The position numbers and the translations under genes were made by a program. 46,616 nucleotides of DNA. Origin: a virus. Location of the stretch: the IMG/VR virus record IMGVR_UViG_3300025141_014699, positions 1 through 46,616 of that record; one strand, written 5' to 3'. Positions 6,138-32,169 of this stretch are shown here, one piece after another. The notes beneath the pieces were generated by a model that had not been told where the DNA came from, searched no databases, and saw nothing but the letters and a program-made list of their open reading frames with translations. Position 1 is the stretch's first letter, and each line of letters starts with the position of its first letter.

Positions 6138-8102
6138 TTGTTTAGTAGCCCATTTGAAAATCAAGAGACCCCAGTCTCCATTCCAGATCACACTGACGTA
6201 GTTTTTGTTTCTGATCTTTTTTCTAGTGACCACGTAGGTGGAGCAGAGCTTACAACAGATGCCATCATAGATGCTTCTCCGCTTAGTGTTTTCAGGCTAC
6301 ATTCAAAAGATGTAAATGAAAAAACACTGAGCGAGGGAATAGAAAAATATTGGATATTTGGAAATTTTGCATCAATGAACCTAGATCTTCTTCCAGGAAT
6401 CATATCACAGATAAAGTATTCTATTGTTGAATATGACTATAAATACTGCAAATATAGATCACCTGAAAAGCACTTTTTTGCAGAATCTAAACCATGCGAT
6501 TGCAATGAGGATATGCATGGCAAAATGATATCTGCATTTTATTATGGGGCAAAATCTCTATGGTGGATGTCAACAGCACAAAAGGAAGTATACCATTCTT
6601 TATTTCCATTCTTGGGAGAGGTAAAAAATACAGTTTTATCTTCTGTATTTTCACGAGAATTTTTTGAAAAAGCTGCTGAGCTTTCATCAATAGCAGAGAA
6701 GAAAATAGAAGCTGGAGAAGCATCAAGAGATAAGTGGATAGTAGTAGGATCAACTTCTTGGATAAAGGGGGTAGATGATTCTATAAAATACTGTGTAGAT
6801 AACGGTTTAGACTATGAGCTTGTAGAGAACATGAACTATGATGATTTGCTTGAAAAGCTATCTACTGCACACGGTCTAGTGTTTTTGCCAAAGGGCGGAG
6901 ATACTTGTCCACGAATTACAATAGAGGCAAAGATTCTGGGATGTAAGCTTGTTCTTAATGAAAATGTCCAACATGCAAATGAAAAATGGTTTATGACAGA
7001 GGATATTAAAGAGTTTGGAGAGTATCTCTACTCAGCAAGAGAGCGATTCTGGCATGGAATATCAAAAGATGTAAATCACAAACCTACAATAAGCGGGTAT
7101 ACAACTACGCGTAATTGTTTAAATCAAAACTATCCTTTCCAGGAGTCTATATTGTCTTTAATTGGGTTCTGTGACCAGGTTGTAGTTGTTGATGGTGGTT
7201 CAACAGACGGAACATGGGAAGTACTACAGAAGCTGACAGAGGCCCACGAAAAGCTAATAATACACCAGCAGACAAGAGATTGGGAAAATACTAGATTCGC
7301 TGTATTTGACGGTCTTCAAAAGGCTCTAGCAAGAGCTCTTTGTACTGGAGAATTTTGCTGGCAACAAGACTCTGATGAGATAGTTCATGAAGATGATTAT
7401 GATAAAATACTCAGTCTTGTGAATCAGGCGCCTAAAAATATGGATCTAATAGCACTTCCTGTTATTGAATTCTGGGGATCAAAGAATAAAATTAGAATTG
7501 ATTCAACGCCATGGAAATGGAGATTGTCACGAAATAGACCCCATATAACGCATGGAATACCAGAAAATCTTAGACAATTTGACAGTGAGGGAAATCTCTA
7601 TGCACTACCTGGGACAGATGGCTGTGATTATGTTAGAAGTGATACATACGAACCTATTCCATTTGCAAATTTTTACACAGCTGAAATTCATCAAATTAGA
7701 GAATCTGCACTATCCGGGGATGAGACATCTTTATCATCTTATAAAGAAATTTTTAATAATGTGAAAAATCAGCTTCCGTCAATTTATCATTATTCCTGGT
7801 TCGATCTTGAAAGAAAAATAAAAACATATAAAAATTATTGGTCCAAGCACTGGCAAAGTCTCTATAATATGGATCAAGAAGATATCCCAGACAATAATAT
7901 GTTTTTTAATAAAAAATGGTCAAAAGTAACAGATGCAGAAATAAAAAAACTAGCAAAGAAACTAGAAAAAGAAATGGGCGGCTGGATATTTCACACAAGA
8001 GTAGACTTTAGCAATCCGACACCAAGCATTGTTTTTGAAGAAGATCATCCGGAAGTCATCAAATCTTGGATAAAAAAAGAAGAAAAAATACAGATAGGAT
8101 AA
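6138..8102 (+). CDS. GT4-GT2 two-domain glycosyltransferase
   Basis: The start is TTG behind a strong AAGGAG. Residues 20-310 form a GT-B-like domain: a Gly-rich entry (SDHVGGAE), a typical second-domain strand (WIVVGSTSWIKG, near residue 200) and PKGGDTCPRITIEAKILGC. From about residue 316 a GT-A family 2 domain begins, with VVVDGGSTDGTWE near 349 and the metal-binding type motif QQDSDE near 409. The tail (about 560-654) is Lys-rich and unassigned. It is probably a cytoplasmic bifunctional enzyme adding two sugars in a row; donor and acceptor cannot be read from sequence. It opens the glycan island and is followed four bases later by another GT2 gene. Confidence 0.85.
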   Translation: MFSSPFENQETPVSIPDHTDVVFVSDLFSSDHVGGAELTTDAIIDASPLSVFRLHSKDVNEKTLSEGIEKYWIFGNFASMNLDLLPGIISQIKYSIVEYDYKYCKYRSPEKHFFAESKPCDCNEDMHGKMISAFYYGAKSLWWMSTAQKEVYHSLFPFLGEVKNTVLSSVFSREFFEKAAELSSIAEKKIEAGEASRDKWIVVGSTSWIKGVDDSIKYCVDNGLDYELVENMNYDDLLEKLSTAHGLVFLPKGGDTCPRITIEAKILGCKLVLNENVQHANEKWFMTEDIKEFGEYLYSARERFWHGISKDVNHKPTISGYTTTRNCLNQNYPFQESILSLIGFCDQVVVVDGGSTDGTWEVLQKLTEAHEKLIIHQQTRDWENTRFAVFDGLQKALARALCTGEFCWQQDSDEIVHEDDYDKILSLVNQAPKNMDLIALPVIEFWGSKNKIRIDSTPWKWRLSRNRPHITHGIPENLRQFDSEGNLYALPGTDGCDYVRSDTYEPIPFANFYTAEIHQIRESALSGDETSLSSYKEIFNNVKNQLPSIYHYSWFDLERKIKTYKNYWSKHWQSLYNMDQEDIPDNNMFFNKKWSKVTDAEIKKLAKKLEKEMGGWIFHTRVDFSNPTPSIVFEEDHPEVIKSWIKKEEKIQIG

Positions 8103-8105
8103 AAA

Positions 8106-8804
8106 ATGGAAGTAATCTTTGTAGTACCGTGCTTCAATATGAGTAGAAACTTTGAGGCGCTGGTAAAATCTATGATCTCTCAGAAAGACGACAGGTGGCG
8201 ATGTATCTTTATAGATGATATGTCAACTGATGATACCTGGGAATGCATGTCGGTCTTTAGTCATAAAAAGTTTAGTGCAATTAAAAATAATGAAAAAAAG
8301 TTTGCATTAAAAAATATAGTTGAAAATTCAAGGTTATTTCAAGAAAGAAATGATGTAATAATAGCAGTCATAGATGGAGATGATATGCTATGCAATGAAA
8401 ATACAGTATCTCTTCTTATTAATGAATATGACAAAGGGGCAGATGTCGTGTGGACAGCACATAAGTGGGATATAAATGGAATGAATATTTCAAAAGAAAT
8501 GCCTCCCAGTGTAGATCCGTATGCATGGCCATGGTCAAGCTCACATCTTCGATCATTTAAAGCAACTCTATTAAAGCAAATATCAGATAATAATTTTAAA
8601 AATACAACAGGAGAGTGGTTTAAAAGAGGATATGATCAAGCTCTTATGCTTCCTATACTAAGCGGAACATCAAATAGATCTTTTTTAAACACTGTTTGTT
8701 ATCAGTATAATATTAACTCTGTATCAATGAAAGAAAGATCTTGGGAAGAGCATGATCAAATATCTACAATTAATATAGTTAGAGCGCGTGGGTTTTTATC
8801 CTAA
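8106..8804 (+). CDS. Family 2 glycosyltransferase
   Basis: This is a single GT-A domain of 232 residues. VIFVVPCFNMSRN opens the fold, IDDMSTDDTWE (near 36) fits the nucleotide-binding strand, and AVIDGDDML (near 89) carries the acidic DxD-type metal site. No membrane segment is visible, so it is probably soluble. It lies between a GT4-GT2 fusion and a GT4 gene and overlaps the latter by one base, consistent with translational coupling. The sugar specificity is unknown. Confidence 0.85.
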   Translation: MEVIFVVPCFNMSRNFEALVKSMISQKDDRWRCIFIDDMSTDDTWECMSVFSHKKFSAIKNNEKKFALKNIVENSRLFQERNDVIIAVIDGDDMLCNENTVSLLINEYDKGADVVWTAHKWDINGMNISKEMPPSVDPYAWPWSSSHLRSFKATLLKQISDNNFKNTTGEWFKRGYDQALMLPILSGTSNRSFLNTVCYQYNINSVSMKERSWEEHDQISTINIVRARGFLS

Positions 8805-9721
8805 TGAATATTTTTTTTGAAAATGTCAATCCTAGCTCTAGATCCGGACCAAATTCATTTGGTAAAAAGTTATCCGAAGAGTTTATTAAAAATGGCCACA
8901 ATATTGTCTTAGGCATTCCAGAGTCTGTTCCAGATGTTCAGCTATCTTTTATTATGTCATCGATAAAAGTATCACCTATGGTTCAAAGATTGGATGGAAT
9001 ATACTTTAACAGTGAGCAGGATTTTAATTCACTAAATGAGCCAATAGAATCAACCTACCTAGCAGCAGATTCTGTAATTTTTCAATCTAATTTTAATAGA
9101 GATCTTACTTTTCACTATTTCGGAAAAAAAGATGACCATCAAATTGTTAGTAATGGAACAAATCTAGAGATAATTAATGGGATTCCTGCACTAGATAGTG
9201 ATGTTTTAAATTCATTTAATGAGGTATGGTGCTGTGCATCTTCATGGCGGCCACACAAAAGGCTAAAAGAAAATATAAAATACTTTATGGATACAGCCCC
9301 GCAAGATGCGTGTCTAATAATAGCGGGAAGCAACCCAGACGTAATGGTAGCTGACCCGAGGGTTTTTTATGCAGGTGATCTTGACTGGGTTACATTAATA
9401 AGCTTATACAAAAGAGCTTCTAAGTTTTTACATCTTGCGTGGCTTGATCACTGCCCAAATGTAGTAATAGATGCAAGAGCTGCTGGGTGCCATATAGTGT
9501 GTTCATCTGCCGGAGGAACTAAAGAAATAGCTGGAAAAAACTCTACAATAATATTAGAAGATGAGTGGGATTTCTCTCCTATCAGGCTATACAATCCTCC
9601 TGAAATGGATTTTTCAAAAACAATTGATTGTAAATATGAATCAGAAATTGATATAAAAGAAGTATATAAAAATTATCTATCTATACTAGAGAGAATTAGG
9701 AATAAAAACAATGTCAGTTAA
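8804..9721 (+). CDS. GT4-like (GT-B) glycosyltransferase
   Basis: This short GT-B enzyme has 305 residues. SSWRPHKRLKENIKYF near residue 145 is the usual entry to the nucleotide-sugar domain. HCPNVVIDARAAGC near 217 corresponds to the family EX7E region, here with Asp at both acidic positions (D-x7-D). The N-terminal acceptor domain is compact. It overlaps the next gene by 11 bases. Substrates are unknown. Confidence 0.8.
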   Translation: MNIFFENVNPSSRSGPNSFGKKLSEEFIKNGHNIVLGIPESVPDVQLSFIMSSIKVSPMVQRLDGIYFNSEQDFNSLNEPIESTYLAADSVIFQSNFNRDLTFHYFGKKDDHQIVSNGTNLEIINGIPALDSDVLNSFNEVWCCASSWRPHKRLKENIKYFMDTAPQDACLIIAGSNPDVMVADPRVFYAGDLDWVTLISLYKRASKFLHLAWLDHCPNVVIDARAAGCHIVCSSAGGTKEIAGKNSTIILEDEWDFSPIRLYNPPEMDFSKTIDCKYESEIDIKEVYKNYLSILERIRNKNNVS

Positions 9722-11551: not shown

Positions 11552-11552
11552 A

Positions 11553-12494: not shown

Positions 12495-12495
12495 A

Positions 12496-12885
12496 ATGAA
12501 AACAATCTTTACAAACGGATGTTTTGATATTTTACATCGTGGGCATGTTGAATTGTTAAAATTTTGTAGCACTCATGGAAAAGTTGTGGTAGGATTAAAT
12601 TCTGATAAAAGTATAAAATCTATAAAAGGTAAATCAAGACCACTAAACAATCAAGCTGATAGAGAGCTCCTTCTAAGATCAATAAAATATGTTGACGACG
12701 TTGTAATTTTTAATGAAGATACTCCAATTACTCTTATAAAAACAATAAAACCTGATATAATTGTTAAGGGCGGAGATTATTCAATAGATGATGTTATTGG
12801 AAACGACATCTGCGAAGTAATAATTTTTAACTATATAGATGGGTATTCAACAACAAAAATCATTCAGAATATTGGTGATAGGTGA
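12496..12885 (+). CDS. hldE2: Heptose-1-phosphate adenylyltransferase (HldE C-terminal type)
   Basis: This 129-residue nucleotidyltransferase has the TNGCFDILHRGH motif (His14, His17), VVGLNSDKSIKSIKG, RPLNNQADRELLLRSI, VKGGDY and the ending GYSTTKII. This is the standard set for the RfaE domain II family, which makes ADP-heptose from heptose 1-phosphate and ATP. In E. coli the domain is fused behind a sugar kinase. Here it is a separate gene placed before the kinase, and the two overlap by up to 47 bases. Confidence 0.9.
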   Translation: MKTIFTNGCFDILHRGHVELLKFCSTHGKVVVGLNSDKSIKSIKGKSRPLNNQADRELLLRSIKYVDDVVIFNEDTPITLIKTIKPDIIVKGGDYSIDDVIGNDICEVIIFNYIDGYSTTKIIQNIGDR

Positions 12886-13615
12886 TGCCTGCCTAGATGA
12901 GTATCACTTTGGATCATGTGATAGGCTCAGCCCAGAAGCACCTGTCCCAGTTTTTAAGCGTGAAAAATATGAATCAAAACAGGGAATGTGTCTTAACGTA
13001 GCAGCAAATTTAAAATCACTTGGAAACACAGTGAGAGTTGATAGAAATAAAGAAATAATAAAAAAAATAAGGCTGGTTGATAAAAAATCAAATCATCACG
13101 TTTTAAGAATAGATGAGGATCCTGACATCACGCCTGCTGACATAAGAAAATACAATAGAGAATCTATGAGAGAATTTGATGCACTCGTAATATCAGACTA
13201 TAATAAGGGATATATTAGAAATGGCGATATTTTAGATATTATAGAGCCCGCTAGGTATGCTGGAATTCCTATATTTGTGGATTCCAAAAAGAAAGATCTT
13301 GGAAATTTTGAGCAATGTATTATTAAGATTAATGAAAAAGAAAAATCTGAGGTTATTAATCTTCCCAAGAGATGCGAATTAGTAATTACTTTAGGAAAAA
13401 ATGGTGCTCTATGGAATAATAAAATATTTCCATCTAGACAGGTCAATGTTCATGATGTTTGCGGTGCTGGCGACGTTTTTTTAGCCGGCCTTGTTTATGA
13501 GTATCTTTTAACCCGAGGCAACATGGAGCTGTCTATAGCCTTTGCAAATAAATGTGCATCTGTTTCTGTCACAGAGTTTGGAACATATATAATTAAAAAG
13601 AGTGATGTATTATGA
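12839..13615 (+). CDS. hldE1: Heptose-7-phosphate kinase (HldE N-terminal type), compact
   Basis: This PfkB-family kinase has the RfaE domain I signature: VIGDACLDEYHFGSCDRLSPEAPVPV at the N-terminus, NVAANLKSLG, VISDYNKG and VCGAGDVF with the catalytic Asp near 212. At 258 residues it is about 60 shorter than usual. The missing part follows SLGNTVRV, where the family has its GIDD segment. It phosphorylates D-glycero-D-manno-heptose 7-phosphate at O-1. The ATG at 12839 lies inside the adenylyltransferase gene; TTG at 12872 or GTG at 12875 would shorten the overlap but trim the first strand. Confidence 0.88.
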   Translation: MGIQQQKSFRILVIGDACLDEYHFGSCDRLSPEAPVPVFKREKYESKQGMCLNVAANLKSLGNTVRVDRNKEIIKKIRLVDKKSNHHVLRIDEDPDITPADIRKYNRESMREFDALVISDYNKGYIRNGDILDIIEPARYAGIPIFVDSKKKDLGNFEQCIIKINEKEKSEVINLPKRCELVITLGKNGALWNNKIFPSRQVNVHDVCGAGDVFLAGLVYEYLLTRGNMELSIAFANKCASVSVTEFGTYIIKKSDVL

Positions 13616-13935
13616 CCTATGTTTTTGACATAGACGGAACAATTTGCTCAATGACTGGGGGCAACTATGGTTTCGCCATACCCTTTCTCAAGAGAATAGA
13701 GAAAATTAACTCTCTTTACGAAGATGGTAATATTATTATTTTCTATACCGCGAGGGGCATGGGAAGAAGCAATAATGATAGAGACGTAGCATGTGGCCAA
13801 TTTTACAATATGACCAAGAAACAATTAGGATCTTGGGGTGTAAAATATCATAAGCTCTTTCTAGGCAAGCCAGCAGGAGACCTGTATATCGATGACAAAG
13901 GAACTATTGACACAGAATTTTTCTCTGATTCCTGA
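13612..13935 (+). CDS. Small HAD-family phosphatase
   Basis: This HAD hydrolase of 107 residues has motif I FDIDGT (Asp6, Asp8), motif II YTARG (Thr46), Lys86 in GKPAGD and motif III IDDKG (Asp94, Asp95). It is much smaller than GmhB (about 190 residues) and has no cap domain. Its place directly after the heptose kinase makes it a candidate for removing the 7-phosphate of heptose bisphosphate, the GmhB step otherwise missing here. That role is inference; related small HADs occur in many capsule clusters with untested substrates. Its start overlaps the kinase stop by four bases (ATGA). Confidence 0.75.
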   Translation: MTYVFDIDGTICSMTGGNYGFAIPFLKRIEKINSLYEDGNIIIFYTARGMGRSNNDRDVACGQFYNMTKKQLGSWGVKYHKLFLGKPAGDLYIDDKGTIDTEFFSDS

Positions 13936-14293
13936 TAAAGTGTCTATTGACATGAAACATGTCGAAAAAGGCTGGGGTTGGGAAAGATGGATAGTTAACT
14001 GCGAAGAGTATTGCGGAAAGCTTCTTTTTTTTGAGAAAGATAAAAAATGCTCATGGCACTATCACAAAATAAAAGATGAAGTATTTTATCTGCAGTCCGG
14101 GTTAATGATTGTTAAGTTTTCTGAAGATGACGATATCAACTCTGCCCAGAAGATAGTGCTAAGACCCGGACAAAATTTTCACGTATACAGAGGATTGAGG
14201 CATCAAATGCTAGCTTTGAAAGACTCAGAGCTCTTTGAATTTTCTACCCAACATTTTGATTCAGATAGTCACAGAATTATTAAAGGAGATTAA
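13892..14293 (+). CDS. Single-domain cupin, sugar-isomerase-like
   Basis: This single cupin barrel has a metal site H56-x-H58-x4-E63 and a later H104 in GLRHQM. KGWGWERWIVN and WHYHKIKDEVFYLQSG are typical of mannose-6-phosphate-isomerase-like small cupins. The substrate is unknown; it may isomerise or bind a sugar phosphate for the heptose genes or the carbamoyltransferase around it. The ATG at 13892 overlaps the HAD gene by 44 bases. The ATG at 13951 (MKHVEKGWGWE) removes the overlap and may be the true start. The stop is two bases before the next ATG. Confidence 0.78.
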   Translation: MTKELLTQNFSLIPDKVSIDMKHVEKGWGWERWIVNCEEYCGKLLFFEKDKKCSWHYHKIKDEVFYLQSGLMIVKFSEDDDINSAQKIVLRPGQNFHVYRGLRHQMLALKDSELFEFSTQHFDSDSHRIIKGD

Positions 14294-14295
14294 TA

Positions 14296-15924
14296 ATGAA
14301 AATAGCAGGCGTATGGTCAGGGCATGACTGCTCTTATTGTGTATTAGACAATGGTAAGCCAGTCGTACATGACGAATATGAAAGATTTTTAAGAAAGAAA
14401 GAGCCAAAGGGTGATTCTGTTAGATTTCTTTTAGACAATTATAAAGACGCTCAGGAAGTTTCTTATGTTGTAAGCTGCTTGCCTCAAAGCAAAATAACAC
14501 AGCATGAAGACTCATTTAATGAGATAAAAAGTGTAGTTGAAAAAAATGAAGGCAATATGTTCATGGTAGGACACCACCAGGCACACGCTGCCAATGCATT
14601 TTTTTCAAGTAACCTTGACCAGTCTCTAATTATCACTCTGGACGGCGGCGGAGTCGAGCAAGAAAATAAGGTAACTGCTGCAACAATCTGGGCTGGAAAA
14701 GATAACAAGATAGGCCCAGTTCATGTTTTTGATTTTCATGATTTTAACATAGGTGGCGTCTGGACACGAGTGACTAGGTACGTTTTCAATCTACAGTCTG
14801 GATACCCAAGAGGTCATCAGGCAGGAACCGTGATGGCACTTGCTGCATTCGGCGATCCTACAAAGTTTCACGATGACTTCTTTAAAATGATGACAGTAGA
14901 CAATCAATACGCATATCACAAACCTCCAGGTCAAAAGGATGGAGAGAATATTGGAGAAGATCCACCACACCCGTATCTGGACAAGTATAGAAAGCTTGCA
15001 GATGAAAGTGAGCAAAATAAATTTGACCTTGCAGCTGGATTGCAAAGTGCAACTGAAATGAGATTCAAAGGATTATTAGAAGATATTTTACGACAAATTC
15101 CTGACATTAAAAATCTTTGTCTAGCAGGCGGTGTAGCTTTAAACTCTGTTATGACAGGAAAAATAAAAAACTGGTTCCCACAGATAGAGAATATATACAT
15201 ACCCCCAGCAACCCATGACGGCGGCCTCACAATAGGCGCCGCACAATATGTCTGGCATCAAGTTTTAGATAATCCAAGGATAAAGTGGGAAGATAACTTT
15301 ACACCCTATTTAGGTAGAACTTACTCAATTGAAGAAGTCAAAGAAGCCTTGGGCAAAAGAAGTGATGAAATATCACTAAATGAAAATGCATCTGATATAG
15401 ACATAATAAACTGTCTAAAAAATCAAGAAATAATATCTGTATTTGGCGGCGGCTCTGAGTCGGGCAAAAGGGCACTCGGAAATAGAAGCATACTGGCTGA
15501 CCCTAGAAGTGAAGTCATGAAAGATATTATAAATGAAAAGGTTAAGCATAGGCAGAAGTTTAGACCATTCGCACCTTCTATATTAAGAGAAGAAGTTTCA
15601 AATTGGTTCACTGAAGATCAAGAAAGTCCATATATGTCATTTGTTCTTCAGTTTACAGATGAAGCAAAGAAAAAAGTACCTGCTGTTGTTCATCATGACG
15701 GATCAGCACGCTTACAGACTGTAACTGAAAATGATAATCCGTGGTACTATAGCTTTCTTCAAGAATGGAATATAGAGTCTGGTGTTCCTATAATATTGAA
15801 TACCAGCTTTAACGATAGAGAGCCTATTTGTGAAACTCCAGATCACGCTCTAGACTGTTTTTTAAGGACTAATATAGACAAGCTCTATTTTTATGATTAT
15901 GGAATAATAGTGAGTAAAAAATGA
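14296..15924 (+). CDS. Sugar O-carbamoyltransferase (NodU/CmcH family)
   Basis: This 542-residue protein of normal family length opens with AGVWSGHDCSYCVLDNGK. It has the catalytic metal motif GHHQAHAANAFF (His93, His94, His97), DGGGVE near 116, ESGKRALGNRSILADPR near 388, FRPFAPSIL and PIILNTSFN in the C-terminal part. Family members move a carbamoyl group from carbamoyl phosphate, through carbamoyl-AMP, onto a sugar hydroxyl. An AAGGAG-type ribosome site lies before the ATG. It presumably caps one of the island's sugars. The family assignment is firm; the acceptor is unknown. Confidence 0.93.
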   Translation: MKIAGVWSGHDCSYCVLDNGKPVVHDEYERFLRKKEPKGDSVRFLLDNYKDAQEVSYVVSCLPQSKITQHEDSFNEIKSVVEKNEGNMFMVGHHQAHAANAFFSSNLDQSLIITLDGGGVEQENKVTAATIWAGKDNKIGPVHVFDFHDFNIGGVWTRVTRYVFNLQSGYPRGHQAGTVMALAAFGDPTKFHDDFFKMMTVDNQYAYHKPPGQKDGENIGEDPPHPYLDKYRKLADESEQNKFDLAAGLQSATEMRFKGLLEDILRQIPDIKNLCLAGGVALNSVMTGKIKNWFPQIENIYIPPATHDGGLTIGAAQYVWHQVLDNPRIKWEDNFTPYLGRTYSIEEVKEALGKRSDEISLNENASDIDIINCLKNQEIISVFGGGSESGKRALGNRSILADPRSEVMKDIINEKVKHRQKFRPFAPSILREEVSNWFTEDQESPYMSFVLQFTDEAKKKVPAVVHHDGSARLQTVTENDNPWYYSFLQEWNIESGVPIILNTSFNDREPICETPDHALDCFLRTNIDKLYFYDYGIIVSKK

Positions 15925-16853
15925 AGATATCTTTTAATAGACCAAAAGCATCCACGGCATACGGAGGCGGCGCTCATTTTGTAACAAATTTTTCTAACTA
16001 TCTTGAAAAAGTAGGCCACAGCGTATGTCACAAGCTAGAGCCGGGCATAGATCTAATCTTTATGATAGATCCCAGACCAAACGAAGCCGGATACTCTATT
16101 CAGGAAATTTTTAACTATAAGCATCAATTTCCAAAAACAAAAATGCTTCATAGAGTCAATGAGTGTGATAAAAGAAAAAATACAAACTTTATGGATCAGA
16201 CCGTAATGCTATCCAATCAGCTAGCAGATCACACAATTTTTATAAGCAAGTGGCTAAGTGATTATTTTATACAAAAAGGTTTCAATAAGTCGTATGCCAC
16301 AATAGTGAACGGATGTGATACAAGCCACTTCTACCCAGCAGACAGGCTATTCAATCCTACAAGACCAAAAATAGTTACGCATCACTGGTCAGATAACTGG
16401 ATGAAAGGATTCGATATCTATACTAAAATAGATGAATATCTTCAAGAGAATGATAGATTTGATTTCACATATATAGGGAGATATTTTCAAGGCTACTCTC
16501 CGAAAAAGACTAATATTATACCACCTCTGTATGGTCATGATTTAGGTAACGAGCTTAGAAATCATGACATCTATGTCACAGCATCTAGATGGGAACCGTG
16601 CGGAATGCATCATATAGAAGGAGCATCATGTGGATTACCAGTTTTATATCATGCTGATGGCGGCGGAATAAACGAAACTTGCGTAAACCACGGATATCAA
16701 TTTAGATCTTTTGCAGAGTTTTTAAAATATCTTGATCTAACCACTTCTAATCTCGATGGCTTAAAAGATAAAATAAATTATGAACAGCTAAGCTCAAAAA
16801 TATGTTCTGATAACTATTATAAAGAAATAGTTGGAATGTTCAGTGAAAAATGA
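15921..16853 (+). CDS. GT4 glycosyltransferase
   Basis: This 310-residue GT-B enzyme has a Gly-rich N-terminus (YGGGAHFVTNF), the interdomain VNGCDTSHFYP near residue 128, THHWSDNWMKGFD as donor-domain entry, and a perfect EX7E motif (EPCGMHHIE, near 225-233) followed by ASCGLPV. It overlaps the carbamoyltransferase by four bases (ATGA). Retaining chemistry is expected for the family; the sugars are unknown. Confidence 0.85.
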   Translation: MKISFNRPKASTAYGGGAHFVTNFSNYLEKVGHSVCHKLEPGIDLIFMIDPRPNEAGYSIQEIFNYKHQFPKTKMLHRVNECDKRKNTNFMDQTVMLSNQLADHTIFISKWLSDYFIQKGFNKSYATIVNGCDTSHFYPADRLFNPTRPKIVTHHWSDNWMKGFDIYTKIDEYLQENDRFDFTYIGRYFQGYSPKKTNIIPPLYGHDLGNELRNHDIYVTASRWEPCGMHHIEGASCGLPVLYHADGGGINETCVNHGYQFRSFAEFLKYLDLTTSNLDGLKDKINYEQLSSKICSDNYYKEIVGMFSEK

Positions 16854-20493: not shown

Positions 20494-21369
20494 ATGATAG
20501 AATTTTTGCTAAAAGAAACAAATACAAAGCCGTTGATTATACACGGCGCCGGCAAGTCAAAAACTGTGCCAGGCGGCGTGTGGGACACACTTCAATCAAT
20601 GTTTTATACACACATAAATATCTTTCAAAAGTATCCTGGATTAAACAGTATTGATCAGAATGATATAACAATTGTAACGTGGAAAGGGGGAAAGTATCTT
20701 CATCAAAAAACAATTCTAGAAACATGTGCAGAGTATTATGATTTCCCTATTGTAATTTTAAAATGGCCAGATAGAGCTTCTTTTTGGGAAGGATGCCGTA
20801 CAAAGCTTACGTCAACATTAGGCGCAATAGAGGATGGATTAATAAAAACAAAGTATATCATGTATTTAGATGTGAGTGATGTCATTTTACTAGACCACCC
20901 AATGGTGATTCTTAATAGATATTTAGACCTATTTCCTGAAAAAATAGTATTTAATGCTGAAAGAAATCACTATCCTAAAAATGAAGTTATTGGAAAACGG
21001 TGTCCTAGAATTGATCCTCTAGTAAAAAGCAGGTTTGATAAAGTTTTTAATTTTGATTTACTAAAGACTCACACGGAGTTTAAATATTTAAACGGCGGGG
21101 TTGCTATAGGAAAGACAAATGACTTTAAAGAGTTTTTAGAGTATGCGACATCACCAGAAACACAATGTGGAATAGATATTTCACCACCTATAACAAGTCA
21201 ATTTATATTGAGAATAGCGCAGCATGACAAAAGAGAAAAGGTGGTCCTTGATGATGAATGTAAATTATTCACATGTCTATATAACGGCCCAGTAGAGGGT
21301 GATAATATGGGTGAAGGCAGGCCTGCATCTGAGATCAATATGCAAGATGTAGAGATTAAAGCTGGATGA
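20494..21369 (+). CDS. PLOD-like glycosyltransferase, paralogue A
   Basis: This 291-residue protein resembles the glycosyltransferase domain of procollagen lysyl hydroxylases. It has MYLDVSDVILLDHP near residue 123 (acidic metal site), KIVFNAERNHYPK near 149, YLNGGVAIG near 197 and LDDECKLFTCLYNG near the end. Those enzymes add glucose or galactose to protein or sugar hydroxyls. It is followed eight bases later by a clear paralogue. An AGGAAA ribosome site precedes the ATG. The exact donor is unknown. Confidence 0.7.
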   Translation: MIEFLLKETNTKPLIIHGAGKSKTVPGGVWDTLQSMFYTHINIFQKYPGLNSIDQNDITIVTWKGGKYLHQKTILETCAEYYDFPIVILKWPDRASFWEGCRTKLTSTLGAIEDGLIKTKYIMYLDVSDVILLDHPMVILNRYLDLFPEKIVFNAERNHYPKNEVIGKRCPRIDPLVKSRFDKVFNFDLLKTHTEFKYLNGGVAIGKTNDFKEFLEYATSPETQCGIDISPPITSQFILRIAQHDKREKVVLDDECKLFTCLYNGPVEGDNMGEGRPASEINMQDVEIKAG

Positions 21370-23328: not shown

Positions 23329-23382
23329 GCCTTAGAGGGCAACTTTTTATAAGTCGACTTGTACACGCTTGACTTCGTTTAA

Positions 23383-23388: not shown

Positions 23389-23413
23389 AAAATCTATAGA
23401 CAGGAGACACTAA

Positions 23414-24982
23414 ATGAATATTTTGGCAGTAATACCGGCAAAAGATGATTCTACTAGACTAGATGGTAAAAATCTTAAAAACATAGGAGGTAAATCTCTA
23501 ATAGAGATAGCAGTTAATCACGCAAAGATGTCAAGTCTTGTAACTGACGTAGTTGTATCTACTGATTCTGAGAGAATAAAGAATTTTGTAGAGTCAAATG
23601 GAATATGTGAATGTATTATAAGAGAGCCCACACTTTCAGGCGAGGATGATGTGTTTCTGGTTTATAAGAGTGCCTGGAAGGCAAAAGGATCACACGCAGA
23701 TTATGTCGTCGGCCTACAGCCGGATAATCCAGATAGAAGCTTAAATCTAGATGATGCAATTTCGTATGTTGTAGAAAAAGATTTGGATAATTTTTTTACA
23801 GTTGGCACAGACGGAAGGAAAAACGGATCGACTCGTATTTTCAAGCCAGCGACAGTCAGCTTTTTAGAAGAAAATACGCTTCTTGATGACTGTACTAATA
23901 TTCATACACAGGCAGATTTAAATACTGCAACAAATAGGCTTTTGATAAATTCTAATCCTCTTAATTTAGGCCCAAAAGAAGTATTTATAATAGCTGAGGC
24001 TGCATGCAATCACATGTGTAGTATAGAGCTTGCAAAGGCTATGATTGATTGTGCAGCTGGCGCTGGAGCTAATGCGATAAAATTTCAAACATACAAAGGC
24101 GAGAGAATTGTCACCAAATATGCCCCTGCATTTTGGGGAACTGAAACAATGAAGCAGACACAATATTATCAAAGACTAGATAAGTTCAACAAGGAAGATT
24201 ATGAATTTCTTTTCGACTATGCAAATAGTAAAGGAATACTTCCTTTTTCAACACCGTTTGGAATAGAGGATGCTATGATGTTGAATGAAATAGGAATGAA
24301 AATTTTCAAAATTCCTTCATTTGAAATAGTCAATTTGGAATTATTGAAATGCATAGCTTCATTTCGCAAGCCTATAATACTTTCAACTGGAGCAGCATCT
24401 TACAAAGAGATAGACAAAGCAATAGATGTAATAACCGGGGAGGGAAATTATGACCTAGCCCTCATGGCGTGCACGTTAAGTTATCATACAGAAGACGAAG
24501 ATGCAAACTTAAAGAGAATTCAGACACTGAAGGCGAAGTATCCAAATTTCATGATAGGGCACTCAGATCATACCATGCCAGATCAAAATATGGCAATACC
24601 TGCAATCTCTGTGGCATTAGGTGCAAGAATGATAGAAAAGCACTATACTATGTCCAGAACAATGACTGGGTCTGGACACTATTTTTCTATTCAGCCAGAA
24701 GATCTTAGAAAGATGGTTCACAATATTAGACTTTATGAAAAAGTCATTGGAGATGGATCACAGGGAACGGCGGAAAATGAAAAGAGAGGAAAGGCAGGAG
24801 GAAGAAAAAGCATCGTTGCTAAGATTGATATTAAAAAAGGAATGACTATAGAAAAAGAAATGCTTACGTACAAAAGACCCGGAGACGGTATCTCACCTGA
24901 CCAAGTTGACGCAGTTGTTGGAATGACAGCGTCTGATGATATTGGCGAAGACTATCAAGTTACATGGGAAAATGTTAAATGA
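23414..24982 (+). CDS. NeuA-NeuB fusion: CMP-nonulosonate synthetase plus nonulosonate synthase
   Basis: Residues 1-175 are a CMP-sialate synthetase-type cytidylyltransferase: VIPAKDDSTRLDGKNLKNIGG, VVVSTDSERI, and LQPDNPDRS in place of the usual LQPTSPLR. It is shorter than stand-alone enzymes (about 225). Residues 185-455 are a NeuB/PseI/LegI synthase (IIAEAACNH, AIKFQTYKGE, STPFG, FKIPSFEIVN, STGAA, IGHSDHT, GARMIEKHYT), and the C-terminus is a SAF/antifreeze-like domain (RRKSIVA... to KRPGDGISP). The synthase condenses PEP with a hexosamine-type sugar and the other domain activates the acid with CTP. Which nonulosonic acid is made cannot be told. Confidence 0.9.
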   Translation: MNILAVIPAKDDSTRLDGKNLKNIGGKSLIEIAVNHAKMSSLVTDVVVSTDSERIKNFVESNGICECIIREPTLSGEDDVFLVYKSAWKAKGSHADYVVGLQPDNPDRSLNLDDAISYVVEKDLDNFFTVGTDGRKNGSTRIFKPATVSFLEENTLLDDCTNIHTQADLNTATNRLLINSNPLNLGPKEVFIIAEAACNHMCSIELAKAMIDCAAGAGANAIKFQTYKGERIVTKYAPAFWGTETMKQTQYYQRLDKFNKEDYEFLFDYANSKGILPFSTPFGIEDAMMLNEIGMKIFKIPSFEIVNLELLKCIASFRKPIILSTGAASYKEIDKAIDVITGEGNYDLALMACTLSYHTEDEDANLKRIQTLKAKYPNFMIGHSDHTMPDQNMAIPAISVALGARMIEKHYTMSRTMTGSGHYFSIQPEDLRKMVHNIRLYEKVIGDGSQGTAENEKRGKAGGRKSIVAKIDIKKGMTIEKEMLTYKRPGDGISPDQVDAVVGMTASDDIGEDYQVTWENVK

Positions 24983-26391
24983 AAAAGATATTACTAATTG
25001 CCGCACCGCGGCCAGATTCAAACCAAACAGCGATGCATATGGGTGACGGAAGACCTCCTATGGGCCTTGCATATATTAGCGCCTATGTAGAACAATTTGG
25101 ACATGAAACGAAGATAGTTGATTTATATCATTTTGGTGGTGGCCACGATGATGAAAAGCAAAAATCAATGAAAGCATCTGCTACAATTTCTCATATCATT
25201 AAGAATGATAAAGAGTTTGATATATTTGGAGAGATAGATACATACAAACCAGATATTATTGGAATGTATCTGGGCACAATATCATATTACGAAGGCACAC
25301 AGCTAGCACTATCAATTAAAGAAAAATATCCAAATATTACCACAATGGTCGGCGGTCCTCATGCCATTGAGCTGCCTGAGACATTAGTTCCATACTTTGA
25401 CTACGTTGTTTGCGGCGAGGGAGAGATTGCAGCATTGGACATAGTGGAAGGAAGAGTCAAAGAGAAAGGCATCGTCAAGAGAGATAATATTGATGATATT
25501 AATGAGTTGCCTCTGCCGGATTTTAGACACTTTATAAACAGGCCATATAACTGGCAATTAGAAATGTTTGAAAATGATATTAATCCTGTTATTACAATTA
25601 ATTCAACTCGAGGATGCCCATTTTCATGTATGTTCTGTGGCGTCGCAAATACAAAATTTAGAGGAATTAGTGCAGGCAGATTAGTAGGCTATATCGATGA
25701 GCTACAGTCAAAGTATGGCGCACAAGGCATCTATTTTAGAGAAGATAATTTCACAGTTCAGCCAAAACGTGTCGAAGAATTTTGTGACATATTAATATCA
25801 GAAAATATGAATGTCAAGTGGGCATGTGAGACTAGAGTTAACAATCTCAAGCCAGCGCTTATTGAAAAAATGGCAAAGTCTGGGTGCGTAGGACTTTATA
25901 TAGGGGTGGAAAGCGGAAGTGAGCGTATGCTAAAATACATGAGGAAAGGAGAGACTCGAAAAGACTTCATTGAAAAGATGCCAATAATTCACGCGTCAGG
26001 AATGACAACTTATACAACGTGGGTATATGGCTTACCGTCAGAGACAGAAGAAGATAGAGAGGCCTCTGATAGATTTATTGATCTTCTAAAGCCTACTACA
26101 GCTGATACATTTGTTTATCTTGGCCAGCCCGGAAGTGATTTTTATAAGATGTTAGATGCAACAAACACTTATGAGCTTAAAGAGAGAAATGGTATTTTTT
26201 ATATTCCGGGATTCTTACATCTTGCAAGAAGGGTATACGGAGACAACGATCCGCGAGTAGAGTTTGTTGAAAGGCTATATGAAAAAAATAAAATCAAGCC
26301 AGGAAAGCTAACACCTTATCATATCAATGATTCACTTTATCATAAGCTTAAAACGACAAAGATTAGAACTCAACTAAGTGTAAAGAAATAG
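24979..26391 (+). CDS. B12-binding radical SAM enzyme
   Basis: An N-terminal cobalamin-binding-like domain (MGLAYISAYVEQFGHETKIVDL, DIIGMYLGTIS, MVGGPHAIELPE, YVVCGEGEIAAL) precedes a radical SAM core with C213-x3-C217-x2-C220 in TRGCPFSCMFC, YFREDNFTV, and GVESGSERMLKYMRKG. The end is a short family-specific domain. It overlaps the NeuA-NeuB gene by four bases (ATGA), suggesting it acts on a nonulosonate-containing product, but this is inference. It is clearly diverged from the radical SAM gene at 17990. Confidence 0.88.
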   Translation: MKKILLIAAPRPDSNQTAMHMGDGRPPMGLAYISAYVEQFGHETKIVDLYHFGGGHDDEKQKSMKASATISHIIKNDKEFDIFGEIDTYKPDIIGMYLGTISYYEGTQLALSIKEKYPNITTMVGGPHAIELPETLVPYFDYVVCGEGEIAALDIVEGRVKEKGIVKRDNIDDINELPLPDFRHFINRPYNWQLEMFENDINPVITINSTRGCPFSCMFCGVANTKFRGISAGRLVGYIDELQSKYGAQGIYFREDNFTVQPKRVEEFCDILISENMNVKWACETRVNNLKPALIEKMAKSGCVGLYIGVESGSERMLKYMRKGETRKDFIEKMPIIHASGMTTYTTWVYGLPSETEEDREASDRFIDLLKPTTADTFVYLGQPGSDFYKMLDATNTYELKERNGIFYIPGFLHLARRVYGDNDPRVEFVERLYEKNKIKPGKLTPYHINDSLYHKLKTTKIRTQLSVKK

Positions 26392-26417
26392 CACTTGGCT
26401 ATCATAGAATTAGAATA

Positions 26418-27053: not shown

Positions 27054-27054
27054 A

Positions 27055-27894: not shown

Positions 27895-27942
27895 CATAAT
27901 ATTTTTTTATTATATTTTATTCTTAAGATAAATGAGAGATGA

Positions 27943-28827
27943 ATGGGTGATTATTTGGTAACAGGCGGGTGCGGTTTCATCGGAGGCCATATAGTAGACA
28001 GGCTTATTAGCACGGGTCACAATGTTACAGTCATAGATGATCTTTCTGCACCTGAGAACGAGACATTTCACTATAATGAGAAAGCAAGATATTTCAAGCA
28101 AGATATATCAAAATCAGACTGTAGCTCACTTTTTCAAGGAATTGATTGCGTATTTCATCTAGCAGCTAGATCGAGAATTCAACCCACTATAGGAAATCCC
28201 TCTGAGTGCTTCGAGGTGAATGTCATAGGCACCCAGAGAGTTTTAGAATGGTGTCGAACATATTCTGTAAAAAAAGTAATATATTCAGGAACATCATCGC
28301 TTTATGGTCATCAAAATATAATTCCATTTACCCCGGCAATGCCACCAGATTGCCTAAATCCATACAGCATGTCAAAGTGGATGGGAGAACAGGTATGTAA
28401 ATTATACTATCAGCTTTACGGAATAGAGTCTATAGTTTTAAGATATTTTAATGTTTTTGGACCAAGAGAACCGATCAAAGGTGTATATGCTCCTGTTATT
28501 GGACTTTTTAAAAGGCAAGTTAAAAGTGGAATGCCAATGACAATAGTAGGAGACGGAAGCCAGAGAAGAGATTTTACCTATATAGACGATGTTGTTGATG
28601 CAAATATGTCTGCACTTGTAGCAGACATAAGATTTGGTATATACAATGTAGGAACAGGAAAAAACTATAGTATAAATGAAATAGCAGACATGGTAGGAAA
28701 AGAAAAAGTATACATGCGTGAACGACCTGCTGAAGTTAAAGAAACTCTTGCAAATATAAATTTAACATTACAAGACCTCGGATGGTCACCTAGCACAGAT
28801 ATATCGAAAATTATAGATCAATACTAG
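27943..28827 (+). CDS. NAD-dependent nucleotide-sugar epimerase/dehydratase
   Basis: This extended SDR of 294 residues has VTGGCGFIGGHI, VIDDLSA, FHLAARSRIQPT, SGTSSLYG, PYSMSKWMGE (catalytic Tyr and Lys) and LRYFNVFGPRE. It resembles GalE/UDP-glucuronate 4-epimerase-type enzymes. With the preceding dehydrogenase it could make a UDP-hexuronate such as UDP-galacturonate. Substrate choice is inference. The 48-base gap upstream is AT-rich and holds only a weak AT-only hairpin. Confidence 0.87.
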   Translation: MGDYLVTGGCGFIGGHIVDRLISTGHNVTVIDDLSAPENETFHYNEKARYFKQDISKSDCSSLFQGIDCVFHLAARSRIQPTIGNPSECFEVNVIGTQRVLEWCRTYSVKKVIYSGTSSLYGHQNIIPFTPAMPPDCLNPYSMSKWMGEQVCKLYYQLYGIESIVLRYFNVFGPREPIKGVYAPVIGLFKRQVKSGMPMTIVGDGSQRRDFTYIDDVVDANMSALVADIRFGIYNVGTGKNYSINEIADMVGKEKVYMRERPAEVKETLANINLTLQDLGWSPSTDISKIIDQY

Positions 28828-28829
28828 TG

Positions 28830-28842
28830 TATAATTTATAAT
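28830..28842 (+). promoter_or_regulatory. Two TATAAT boxes in tandem
   Basis: TATAAT occurs twice, at 28830-28835 and 28837-28842, in the 34-base gap before the nuclease gene. This could be a promoter giving the nuclease its own transcript. No -35 is recognisable outside the upstream coding sequence, and the AT-rich gap lowers the weight. Confidence 0.3.
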
Positions 28843-28861
28843 ATTTTGTTATTATTTTAAT

Positions 28862-29695: not shown

Positions 29696-29708
29696 TTTAC
29701 TTGATTCA

Positions 29709-29727
29709 CACATATTAGTAATATGTG
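29709..29727 (+). promoter_or_regulatory. Perfect 19-base palindrome (possible operator or hairpin)
   Basis: CACATATTA and its exact reverse complement TAATATGTG flank a single G, 23 bases before a glycosyltransferase ATG. It could be a dimeric repressor site, or in RNA a seven-pair hairpin with a five-base loop. No poly-T follows, so it is unlikely to be a terminator. It is the only strong palindrome I noticed in a gap. Confidence 0.45.
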
Positions 29728-29750
29728 ATTGATGTATCATTGAGGTTTGG

Positions 29751-31001
29751 ATGAGTAAAAAAAAGGTACTAGTGCTTTCTGATCACGCATTGTCTACTTC
29801 AGGCGTAGGCACGCAAACAAGACACTTAATTAATGGTCTTCTTGAAAAATATCCGGGCGAGTGGACATTTCGTCAATTTGGAGCTGCACTAAAGCATACT
29901 GAATATAATACTGCTGTAGTTAATGAAGACTTTATAATAAAGCCAATAGACGGATTCGGAGATAGAGACTTAATAAGAATAACACTGGCAACTGAAAAGC
30001 CTGATATTCTTTTAATTTTTACAGATCCTAGATTTTTTATTTGGCTTTTTGAAATGGAAGATGAAATTCATCAGGTATGTCCAATAGCCTGGTGGCATGT
30101 CTGGGACAACTATCCGTATCCTGAATTTAACGATGTGCTTTATCAATCAACTGATCTTATAAATTGTCATTCACACCTAACTTATGAAATGGTTTCTGAA
30201 AGGCATCCCGATAAGACAAACTTTATTCCACACTCATTGCCAGACAATTTATTTTTTCCGATTGACAATAATCAGAAACAGATGCATAAATCAAGCATCA
30301 TAGGTCATGATAGAAAGGATCATTTCGTAGGAATATGGGTAAATAGAAACGCTAAGAGAAAAAGGCCAAACGATGTACTTTTATCATGGAAGATATTTCT
30401 TGACAAGATAGAGGAAAAATATGGGCATAGAGATGCGACACTTATAATGCATACAGATCCATACGATGTCGAAGGACCAAACCTTGTTATAACTTCAGAG
30501 TTATTGAATATAAATAAAAATGTCATCTTCTCTAGCCAGCGGCTAGAGTTTGACAAGATGAATGTTCTTTATAATATCTCAGATTTTTGTATCAATGTGA
30601 GCTATGCAGAGGGATTCGGACTGCCAACGCTTGAGTCAATGAATTCTGGAAAGCCAATAATTGCAGTCAAAACAGGTGGCTTAACTCGCCAGGTTGTCGA
30701 TCATAGAGACGGAACAGAAAACGGAGTTGCTCTCGATGTCGACTGTAAAACGCTTGTTGGGTCACAACAAGTTCCTTATATTTATGAAGACTATGCAACT
30801 AATGAATCTATTGCAGATGCAATGTTTAAGCTATATGAGATGGATCCAGATGAAAGAGAAAAGCTTGGAGAAAAAGCTAGAAGCTATGCACAATCAGAGT
30901 TCTCTTACGACAAGACAATAGATATGTGGCATGAATCTTTGACTAATCTTTATCATAATTGGAAAAATGACTATGAGAGATGGTCACTAAAAACGTACTA
31001 G
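29751..31001 (+). CDS. GT4 glycosyltransferase
   Basis: This 416-residue GT-B enzyme has SDHALSTSGVGTQTRHLINGL at the N-terminus, a donor-domain entry (WVNRNAKRKRPNDVLLSWKIF) near residue 197, and the textbook EX7E motif in YAEGFGLPTLESMNSGKP near 285, followed by KTGGLTRQVV. It is close in style to mannosyl/glucosyltransferases of polysaccharide clusters. It follows the 55-base gap containing the palindrome and pairs with the next GT4 gene 13 bases downstream. Confidence 0.9.
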   Translation: MSKKKVLVLSDHALSTSGVGTQTRHLINGLLEKYPGEWTFRQFGAALKHTEYNTAVVNEDFIIKPIDGFGDRDLIRITLATEKPDILLIFTDPRFFIWLFEMEDEIHQVCPIAWWHVWDNYPYPEFNDVLYQSTDLINCHSHLTYEMVSERHPDKTNFIPHSLPDNLFFPIDNNQKQMHKSSIIGHDRKDHFVGIWVNRNAKRKRPNDVLLSWKIFLDKIEEKYGHRDATLIMHTDPYDVEGPNLVITSELLNINKNVIFSSQRLEFDKMNVLYNISDFCINVSYAEGFGLPTLESMNSGKPIIAVKTGGLTRQVVDHRDGTENGVALDVDCKTLVGSQQVPYIYEDYATNESIADAMFKLYEMDPDEREKLGEKARSYAQSEFSYDKTIDMWHESLTNLYHNWKNDYERWSLKTY

Positions 31002-31014
31002 GTAGGATATATAA

Positions 31015-32169
31015 ATGAATGTTATTGTTAGGGCGCCTCTTTTGTCTATAAGTGGCTATGGTGTTCATTCTAGGCAGATATTTAAATGGCTTGATAGCAG
31101 AAGTGATGTGCAAGTATTTTCTCAAGTTGTTCAGTGGGGAAATACTAGCTGGATAATAAATAGTGAAGATGAAACAATAAAAAGAATAGTTGCAACATCC
31201 ATGGATTGTAATGGAAAAGCAGACATCTCTTTTCAAGTACAGCTTCCAGATGAGTGGGATCCCAATCTTGCAAAGAAAAATATCGGCGTATCTGCGTTTA
31301 TAGAGACAGACAGATGCAATCCAGCGTGGATAGAGGCAATTAATAAAATGGATTTAGTTATAGTTCCTTCAAATCATGTCAAGGATATAATTTTAAAATC
31401 TGGGCATGTAACCAAAGAGGTAATTGTTGTACCTGAATGGTATTTTGAGGAAATAGATAATGATGAAATAGACGAGATAGATCTCGATATATCAACAAAA
31501 TTCAATTTTTTGACTATAGCACAGTTTACAGGCAATGATCCCACAACTGATAGAAAAAATCTTCTTTTTACTATAAAATGGTTTTGTGAAGCATTTGAAA
31601 ATGACAAAGATGTCGGACTTATTATCAAGACAAATCATGGAAAAGGCACCCGTATAGATCGGCAGCTAACAATGAATAAGATAAGACAGGTAGTAAGCCA
31701 GGTAAGAAAAGGCAAATATCCAAAAATACATCTCTTGCATGGAAATCTCTCTCCAAGTGAAATAGCCGGCCTCTATAAGAGAAAAGATGTAAAGTGCTTT
31801 TTAAGTCTCACAAGAGGTGAAGGGTTTGGATTACCTCTTCTTGAGGCAGCAGCATGTGCCCTCCCTGTCATGGCAACAAACTGGTCAGCTCATTTAGATT
31901 TTTTGAATTTAGGAAAATTTATTCCTATTAGCTATTCAATTCTGCCTATAGATTCTAAAAAGGTAGATAATAGAATATTTCTAGCCGGGATGCAATGGGC
32001 AGAACCCTCTGAGCTAGATTTTAAGAAAAAAGTAGTTAAATTAAAAAACAAATATGATATTCCTAAAAAATGGGCACAAGACCTTTCTAAAAAAGTTAAA
32101 GAAAAATTTAGCTCACAAGCTATCATAAAGACTTATGATGAAGTTTTTGAAAGGATAAATCTTAAATGA
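31015..32169 (+). CDS. GT4 glycosyltransferase
   Basis: This 384-residue GT-B enzyme opens with RAPLLSISGYGVHSRQIFKWL. It has VVPEWYFEE, donor-domain entry FLTIAQFTGNDPTTDRKNLLF near 166, and EX7E in RGEGFGLPLLEAAACALPVMATNWSAH near 267. It is the last gene of the glycan island. Its stop overlaps the next gene by four bases (ATGA), so the island is physically joined to the sigma factor region. Confidence 0.9.
   Translation: MNVIVRAPLLSISGYGVHSRQIFKWLDSRSDVQVFSQVVQWGNTSWIINSEDETIKRIVATSMDCNGKADISFQVQLPDEWDPNLAKKNIGVSAFIETDRCNPAWIEAINKMDLVIVPSNHVKDIILKSGHVTKEVIVVPEWYFEEIDNDEIDEIDLDISTKFNFLTIAQFTGNDPTTDRKNLLFTIKWFCEAFENDKDVGLIIKTNHGKGTRIDRQLTMNKIRQVVSQVRKGKYPKIHLLHGNLSPSEIAGLYKRKDVKCFLSLTRGEGFGLPLLEAAACALPVMATNWSAHLDFLNLGKFIPISYSILPIDSKKVDNRIFLAGMQWAEPSELDFKKKVVKLKNKYDIPKKWAQDLSKKVKEKFSSQAIIKTYDEVFERINLK

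What the first reader, a model, noticed from the sequence alone, without database searches (positions are those of the whole stretch)
6138..32169. A complete-looking glycan factory inside the late region of a T4-like phage
About 26 kb of activated-sugar synthesis, transferase and tailoring genes lies between tail fibre and baseplate genes. It includes ADP-heptose, CMP-nonulosonate, hexuronate-type, carbamoyl, sulfate and radical SAM functions. Location and tight packing suggest late expression with virion genes. Hypothesis: the phage builds a complex glycan on its own virion or on the host surface late in infection. Family calls are from motifs; the joint function is inference.
Basis: partly seen in the sequence, partly recalled or inferred. 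Interest (0 to 1): 0.82.

Follow-up and report, generated by a model that had tools for sequence, protein, structure and literature searches.

The report
Swappable sugar-coating gene island in phage
A T4-like phage known only from environmental DNA carries about 26 kb of genes for making and attaching unusual sugars, wedged between its tail-fibre and tail-baseplate genes; two of the attaching enzymes are inherited with the virion genes while sugar-making genes around them are exchanged, which suggests (but does not prove) that these phages decorate their own particles.

Summary
6138-32169 has 26 same-strand, tightly packed ORFs; 21 carry above-cut-off glycan domains. It is not a chimera: an independent contig (G003) has the island in the same order beside the same baseplate-side neighbours, under purifying selection. 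"Complete" is too strong: several donor pathways lack steps.

New: the island has two tiers. The right-edge cassette (PD-(D/E)XK nuclease, two GT4 transferases) precedes a late sigma factor and baseplate genes with near-perfect synteny (64/64, 66/66, 41/42 loci) and diverges in step with them (r 0.59-0.86). The neighbouring sugar dehydrogenase does not (r 0.02-0.23), and relatives carry other sugar genes in the slot. A six-gene heptose/cupin/carbamoyl module is homologous, gene for gene, to one of the "LPS" clusters of Prochlorococcus phage P-SSM2.

No lipid-carrier initiating transferase or flippase was found in 12 relatives, and no island protein has a clear membrane segment. I therefore favour cytoplasmic glycosylation of virion proteins, probably tail fibres (0.5), over host-LPS modification (0.3) or DNA glycosylation (0.1). 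The acceptor is inferred.

Phage "LPS clusters" and virion glycosylation are both published, so this is a new variant of a known kind.

The parts
3..1958 (+). w01 tail fibre protein (open at 5' end), 24% Ser+Thr
   Evidence: phrog_25747 tail fiber, 1.2e-11; composition
1958..6067 (+). w02 Ser/Thr-rich repeat fibre-like protein, 1369 aa; candidate acceptor
   Evidence: 22% Ser+Thr; similar ORFs lie directly upstream of w03 in relatives
6138..8102 (+). w03 two-part transferase with C-terminal GT2; left anchor of island
   Evidence: PF13704/PF00535; 68 IMG/VR loci, none in 50,697 deposited phages
8106..8804 (+). w04 GT2
   Evidence: PF00535; 46 loci hold both w03 and w04, in order and adjacent in 27
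8804..9721 (+). w05 GT4-type transferase
   Evidence: PF13692/PF00534
9711..10715 (+). w06 GT2
   Evidence: PF00535
10715..11551 (+). w07 GT9 (heptosyltransferase family)
   Evidence: PF01075, 55 bits
11553..12494 (+). w08 HldD-like ADP-heptose epimerase
   Evidence: TIGR02197 above cut-off; P-SSM2 gene 313 homologue, 33%
12496..12885 (+). w09 HldE C-domain-like heptose-1-P adenylyltransferase
   Evidence: TIGR02199 154 bits, below cut-off; P-SSM2 309, 37%
12839..13615 (+). w10 compact HldE N-domain-like kinase (258 aa)
   Evidence: TIGR02198 151 bits, below cut-off; P-SSM2 310, 41%
13612..13935 (+). w11 small HAD-type phosphatase-like protein
   Evidence: weak TIGR01689; P-SSM2 311, 49%
13892..14293 (+). 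w12 cupin
   Evidence: PF07883 below cut-off; P-SSM2 312, 61%
14296..15924 (+). w13 O-carbamoyltransferase (NodU/TobZ type)
   Evidence: PF16861/PF02543; TobZ 1.7e-48; P-SSM2 308, 28%
15921..16853 (+). w14 GT4-type transferase
   Evidence: PF00534
16831..17964 (+). w15 unknown, conserved in G003
   Evidence: no meaningful family even at E 10; 50% in G003
17990..19492 (+). w16 B12-binding radical SAM enzyme
   Evidence: PF04055+PF02310; 85% in G003; 54-65% in many bacterial phyla
19529..20476 (+). w17 probable GT-A transferase (weak)
   Evidence: no Pfam; G003 homologue weak GT2, E 0.0016
20494..21369 (+). w18 PLOD-type glycosyltransferase
   Evidence: PF25342, 36.3 bits
21377..22240 (+). w19 PLOD-type glycosyltransferase
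   Evidence: PF25342, 29.6 bits
22321..23328 (+). w20 sulfotransferase
   Evidence: PF03567
23414..24982 (+). w21 short NeuA-like cytidylyltransferase fused to NeuB-like synthase
   Evidence: PF02348+PF03102+SAF; pseudaminic acid synthase 8h2c 2.7e-47
24979..26391 (+). w22 B12-binding radical SAM enzyme
   Evidence: PF04055+PF02310
26418..27053 (+). w23 GT2
   Evidence: PF00535
27055..27894 (+). w24 two-domain UDP-glucose-dehydrogenase-like enzyme lacking the C-terminal domain; exchangeable
   Evidence: PF03721+PF00984 only; 98 homologues, median 280 aa, none over 350; Mantel r 0.02-0.23
27943..28827 (+). w25 NAD-dependent sugar epimerase
   Evidence: PF01370 191 bits
28862..29695 (+). w26 PD-(D/E)XK nuclease, core cassette
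   Evidence: PF12705; upstream of w27 within 2.5 kb in 64/64 loci
29751..31001 (+). w27 GT4 transferase, core cassette
   Evidence: PF00534; directly before w28 in 66/66 loci; GT-B model
31015..32169 (+). w28 GT4 transferase, core cassette
   Evidence: PF00534; before sigma in 41/42 loci; model, top fold hit chlorovirus GT 3oy2
32455..33210 (+). w30 late sigma factor (T4 gp55-type)
   Evidence: phrog_234 late sigma factor in 7 of 13 family members, best 2.8e-7; the window member itself gives no hit
36828..38678 (+). w35 gp6-like baseplate wedge
   Evidence: phrog_219

Best explanation
The segment is an O-antigen-like, two-tier glycan island of a T4-like phage. Cytoplasmic enzymes make or remodel activated sugars (heptose, a nonulosonate, a dehydrogenated/epimerised sugar) from host intermediates. 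A conserved set of transferases (w27-w28, and w03-w05) builds a short glycan on a phage-encoded acceptor, most likely the adjacent Ser/Thr-rich tail-fibre or other virion protein. Exchangeable enzymes then cap, carbamoylate, sulfate or otherwise modify it. Because the cytosolic machinery needs no lipid carrier or flippase, the glycan would be attached before or during virion assembly, at the time the late sigma factor drives virion genes. Exchange of the sugar cargo would change the virion's 'serotype' while the attachment core stays. Shown: gene content, order, conservation, absence of export genes, co-inheritance. Inferred: enzyme specificities, the acceptor, timing, purpose.
For: Enzyme families. 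Same island in an independent contig and the same slot with other sugar genes in relatives. Core cassette synteny with late sigma and divergence in step with sigma and gp6 (r 0.59-0.86) while the sugar dehydrogenase w24 is uncoupled. No clear TM segment in any island protein. No PF02397, PF00953 or PF01943 in 12 relatives, although most bacterial controls ring. Long Ser/Thr-rich ORF directly upstream of w03 in 18 of 64 loci, against 3% of background ORFs at >=18% Ser/Thr. w28's best fold hit is a chlorovirus transferase, and its list includes the Ser-rich-protein transferases GtfA and SdgB; this is weak because GT4 folds are all alike. The core is shared by relatives on Flavobacterium and Microcystis, which fits a phage acceptor better than a host-specific one. 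Precedent: phage-encoded transferases glycosylate mycobacteriophage capsid and tail tube (PMC12363180, citing Freeman 2023).
Against: No virion glycan data. Host LPS-core modification also needs no phage flippase, since the host would export the LPS; the GT9 heptosyltransferase w07 fits that. GT4 fold matches are generic and include WaaG. In immuto and Mel-JY01 the transferases are not next to fibre or baseplate genes, so adjacency to virion genes is not universal. No T4-type late promoter (TATAAATA) lies in a gap before the island.
Confidence: 0.5

Rival explanations
1. The island remodels host surface glycans (LPS core or lipooligosaccharide) during infection, to block superinfection or hide from grazers. 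Soluble phage transferases would act on host lipid-linked acceptors that the host then exports.
For: This is the published reading for the P-SSM2 'LPS genes' (PMC2984593; PMC9602691), and w08-w13 are homologous to one of those clusters. ADP-heptose enzymes plus a GT9 heptosyltransferase are classic LPS-core functions. w03's GT2 part is weakly GtrB-like.
Against: No flippase, initiating transferase or membrane-anchored transferase in the island or 12 relatives. The transferase core is conserved across relatives on unrelated hosts (Flavobacterium, Microcystis). Expression with the late sigma/baseplate block (inferred from position) would leave little time before lysis.
Confidence: 0.3
2. The core transferases glycosylate phage DNA, and the linked PD-(D/E)XK nuclease digests unmodified DNA, as T4 does with glucosyl-hmC.
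For: The nuclease is always upstream of the two transferases (64/64). Viral transferases are known to hypermodify DNA (cited in PMC12619734). Phage SP-15 (hypermodified DNA by my own knowledge, not tested here) carries a UDP-glucose dehydrogenase close to a transferase.
Against: No thymidylate-synthase/hydroxymethylase family (PF00303) in five long relatives, including the 160, 236 and 284 kb ones. No T4 AGT/BGT among the 50 best fold hits of either transferase. Carbamoyl, sulfate, heptose and nonulosonate cargo beside tail genes is not expected for DNA. The TET/JBP search was uninformative because no control rang.
Confidence: 0.1
3. The genes are largely passenger 'stuffer' DNA picked up from hosts, without function in the phage.
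For: Sullivan 2010 raises stuffer DNA for the cyanophage clusters (PMC3037559). Cargo is variable between relatives.
Against: dN far below dS for every island gene with a counterpart in G003. Intact frames, tight packing and conserved order in an independent contig. Near-perfect synteny of the core.
Confidence: 0.05

Closest known systems
Prochlorococcus phage P-SSM2 'LPS' cluster (genes 308-313; part of the set co-occurring with S-SM2 and S-SSM7)
   Same: Carbamoyltransferase, HldE-C, compact kinase, small HAD, cupin and HldD-like epimerase: all six homologous to w13, w09-w12, w08 (28-61%), near tail-fibre genes in a T4-like phage.
   Different: Different phage lineage. The published cyanophage clusters are placed near hli03/phoH and tRNAs; here the slot is between tail fibre and late sigma/baseplate. 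The window adds NeuA-NeuB, sulfotransferase, PLOD-type and radical SAM genes and the nuclease-GT4-GT4 core.
Flavobacterium phage immuto (Immutovirus) glycan cluster
   Same: Homologous nuclease-GT-GT core (23-34% id) followed by about 10 kb of transaminase, epimerase and transferase genes; same baseplate-gp6 and late sigma families.
   Different: Cluster lies at 48-59 kb, about 20 kb away from its sigma/baseplate genes; other sugar genes; w03 family not found.
Moraphages (jumbo phages, PMC12619734)
   Same: Four putative glycosyltransferase orthogroups in the core genome together with sigma, gp6 and gp25.
   Different: Paper treats the transferases singly; a tie to this cassette was not tested because the sequences were not compared.
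Mycobacteriophage virion glycosylation (Che8, Corndog, Myrna)
   Same: Phage-encoded transferases; the proposed outcome is a virion glycoprotein (PMC12363180).
   Different: No large donor-synthesis island is described there; unrelated phages of actinobacteria.

Membership tests
T4-like phage | Gp23-type major capsid protein | tested here: met
   PF07068 in 10 of 10 relatives of 120 kb or more; not in the window itself, which is a fragment
T4-like phage | gp55-type late sigma factor and gp6-type wedge | tested here: met
   w30 family phrog_234; w35 phrog_219
Cyanophage 'LPS cluster' (P-SSM2 type) | Carbamoyl/HldE/kinase/cupin/epimerase gene set | tested here: met
   six homologous pairs, 28-61% identity
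Cyanophage 'LPS cluster' (P-SSM2 type) | Placed near hli03/phoH and tRNAs; cyanobacterial host | tested here: not met
   No tRNA in window; flanks are fibre and sigma/baseplate genes; host unknown
Wzx/Wzy-type O-antigen or capsule locus | Initiating phosphoglycosyltransferase and flippase | tested here: not met
   No TM protein in island; PF02397, PF00953, PF01943 absent in 12 relatives; several relatives are fragments
Gtr serotype-conversion operon | Membrane GtrA/GtrB and polytopic Gtr | tested here: not met
   w03 GT2 only weakly GtrB-like and without TM
T4-type DNA glucosylation | Base hydroxymethylase and DNA glucosyltransferase | tested here: inconclusive
   PF00303 in 5 of 12 records and absent in 7; which of the hits are hydroxymethylases is not known; no AGT/BGT-like top fold hits
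Phage virion glycosylation | Glycan demonstrated on a virion protein | not testable with these tools
   needs virions and mass spectrometry

The most novel reading that the evidence does not exclude
T4-like phages carry a general virion-decoration system built like a bacterial O-antigen locus: a vertically inherited attachment core linked to late and baseplate genes, with exchangeable donor cassettes that give each phage a different complex glycan (heptose, nonulosonate, carbamoyl, sulfate) and hence a variable virion 'serotype'. One six-gene cassette is shared with cyanophages.
Probability: 0.35. Interest if true: 0.8.

Novelty: new variant of a known kind. Interest (0 to 1): 0.55.

Why it matters
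Large sugar-gene clusters in T4-like phages have been called 'LPS genes' and assumed to alter the host, with their function left open in the 2010 comparative study. Showing that the transferase core is inherited with the late sigma factor and baseplate while a neighbouring donor gene is exchanged points to a phage-encoded acceptor. Because relatives with the same core are cultured (Flavobacterium phage immuto, Microcystis phage Mel-JY01), the question becomes directly testable.

Tried and rejected
Chimera/assembly artefact: rejected by G003 with the whole island in order and an identical independent contig across the baseplate genes. Autonomous surface-polysaccharide locus: no export or initiation genes. 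T4 late promoter TATAAATA before the island: only inside genes; k-mer search of intergenic DNA of the 160 kb relative gave no convincing motif. Structure search of w30 against PDB found nothing, PHROGs on the family did. NeuA-NeuB scan of viral contigs with the single protein found no relatives by pattern, although tblastn on fetched loci found G003. TET/JBP test uninformative. Bacterial relatives of w16 are spread over many phyla with no consistent neighbours shared with the island, so the donor lineage was not identified. A count of w27-w28 adjacency was wrong (stop-to-stop coordinates); one search replaces it. Host: not determined.
Full report
What is there. The window is a 46.6 kb virus record. 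Between a Ser/Thr-rich tail-fibre pair (w01-w02; w01 hits a tail-fibre PHROG) and the baseplate block lie 26 + strand ORFs from 6138 to 32169. Twenty-one have above-cut-off Pfam domains of transferase, sugar-nucleotide or tailoring type; eleven ORFs are glycosyltransferases. The exceptions are w11, w12, w15 and w17 (weak or no call) and w26, a PD-(D/E)XK nuclease. None of the 26 has a clear transmembrane segment.

How complete. ADP-heptose: an HldD-like epimerase passes its equivalog cut-off; the adenylyltransferase and kinase halves of HldE are present as separate small ORFs, below cut-off; GmhA is absent. Nonulosonate: a NeuA-NeuB-like fusion with a short NeuA part; no enzyme making its hexosamine substrate. 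The hexuronate-type dehydrogenase w24 lacks the C-terminal nucleotide-binding domain, and none of 98 phage homologues exceeds 350 aa (median 280). Sulfate and carbamoyl transfer enzymes are present, but no PAPS synthesis was seen. So host intermediates are needed.

Is it real. G003, a separate contig from another metagenome, has w03-w18, w21-w22 and w24 and w26 onwards in the same order with 40-85% identity, plus an inserted aminotransferase/hydroxyacid dehydrogenase/ligase/acetyltransferase cassette. dN is far below dS for every comparable gene, with dS near saturation. G005 has the same fibre-w03-w04 left edge and w24-w28 right edge but different contents; G001, G004 and G007 carry other sugar genes next to the right edge. 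The slot is conserved, the cargo varies.

Two tiers. In IMG/VR loci with both genes, w26-w27 are neighbours in order in 64/64, w27-w28 in 66/66, w28-sigma in 41/42 and sigma-w31 in 48/48; w24-w25 only in 17/64. Across 21 non-redundant loci, pairwise distances of w26, w27 and w28 follow those of the sigma factor (r 0.83, 0.75, 0.86) and gp6 (0.59, 0.76, 0.76), whereas w24 follows none (0.02-0.23). w03 has 68 IMG/VR loci and no match in 50,697 deposited phages; it follows a long Ser/Thr-rich ORF in 18 of 64 loci, and in another group it follows w28.

Lineage. T4-like by Gp23 in 10 of 10 long relatives and by a late sigma factor (phrog_234 in 7 of 13 family members). The nearest deposited phages by gp6 are an uncultured 484 kb phage, Microcystis phage Mel-JY01 and Flavobacterium phage immuto, at about 31%. 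Immuto and Mel-JY01 also carry the nuclease-GT-GT core followed by further glycan genes, away from their baseplate genes.

Known relatives of the cargo. Six P-SSM2 genes (308-313), in one of its published LPS clusters, are homologous to w13, w09, w10, w11, w12 and w08 (28, 37, 41, 49, 61, 33%) and lie among its tail-fibre genes. Sullivan et al. [quoted passage not shown] The older proposal is host-surface change (PMC2984593). Virion glycosylation by phage-encoded transferases is established in mycobacteriophages (PMC12363180).

Mechanism. Initiating transferases (PF02397, PF00953) and flippases (PF01943) are absent from 12 relatives, while most bacterial control genomes ring; several of these records are fragments. 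That argues against an autonomous surface polysaccharide, but not against action on host LPS core. The shared core across phages of different host phyla, its inheritance with late and virion genes, and the fibre neighbours favour a phage-encoded acceptor. Models of w27 and w28 are ordinary GT-B/GT4; hits to a chlorovirus transferase and to Ser-rich-protein transferases are suggestive only. DNA glycosylation is less likely: PF00303 is absent from five long relatives and no DNA glucosyltransferase appears among the 50 best fold hits, but the constant nuclease linkage keeps it open.

Verdict. Real, well-conserved and not a chimera; a new variant of the known phage 'LPS cluster', with a two-tier inheritance pattern that I did not find described in the papers read. 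The acceptor remains inferred.

Noticed in passing
window 27055-27894 and loci L133-L212: A phage-wide two-domain UDP-glucose-dehydrogenase-like family (median 280 aa, none over 350) that lacks the C-terminal nucleotide-binding domain; its substrate may not be a UDP-sugar.
   Followed up: partly
window 28862-29695: PD-(D/E)XK nuclease invariably upstream of the two GT4 transferases, also in Flavobacterium and Microcystis phages; reason for the linkage unknown.
   Followed up: partly
window 17990-19492: B12-type radical SAM protein, 85% identical in G003 and 54-65% in very many bacterial phyla, function unknown.
   Followed up: partly
window 23414-23970: The NeuA-like half of the fusion is short, and the usual DID-type motif near its end reads TNIH in both the window and G003; it may not be a standard CMP-sugar synthetase.
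   Followed up: no
G003:17102-23941 (L022/L023): Inserted cassette of aminotransferase, 2-hydroxyacid dehydrogenase, AMP-ligase-like protein, AAC(3)-type acetyltransferase and a DUF4910 protein in the middle of the same island: looks like an acyl or amino-acyl sugar decoration.
   Followed up: partly
G001:120585-125089: Second sugar-gene group (epimerase, cupin, sulfotransferase) elsewhere in the 160 kb relative.
   Followed up: no
window 40224-43835: Large baseplate-side protein with a LamG/concanavalin-like lectin domain (PF13385).
   Followed up: no
window 35190-36254: Hydrophobic, proline-rich 354 aa protein between w32 and w34, found by similarity only in the closest relatives.
   Followed up: no
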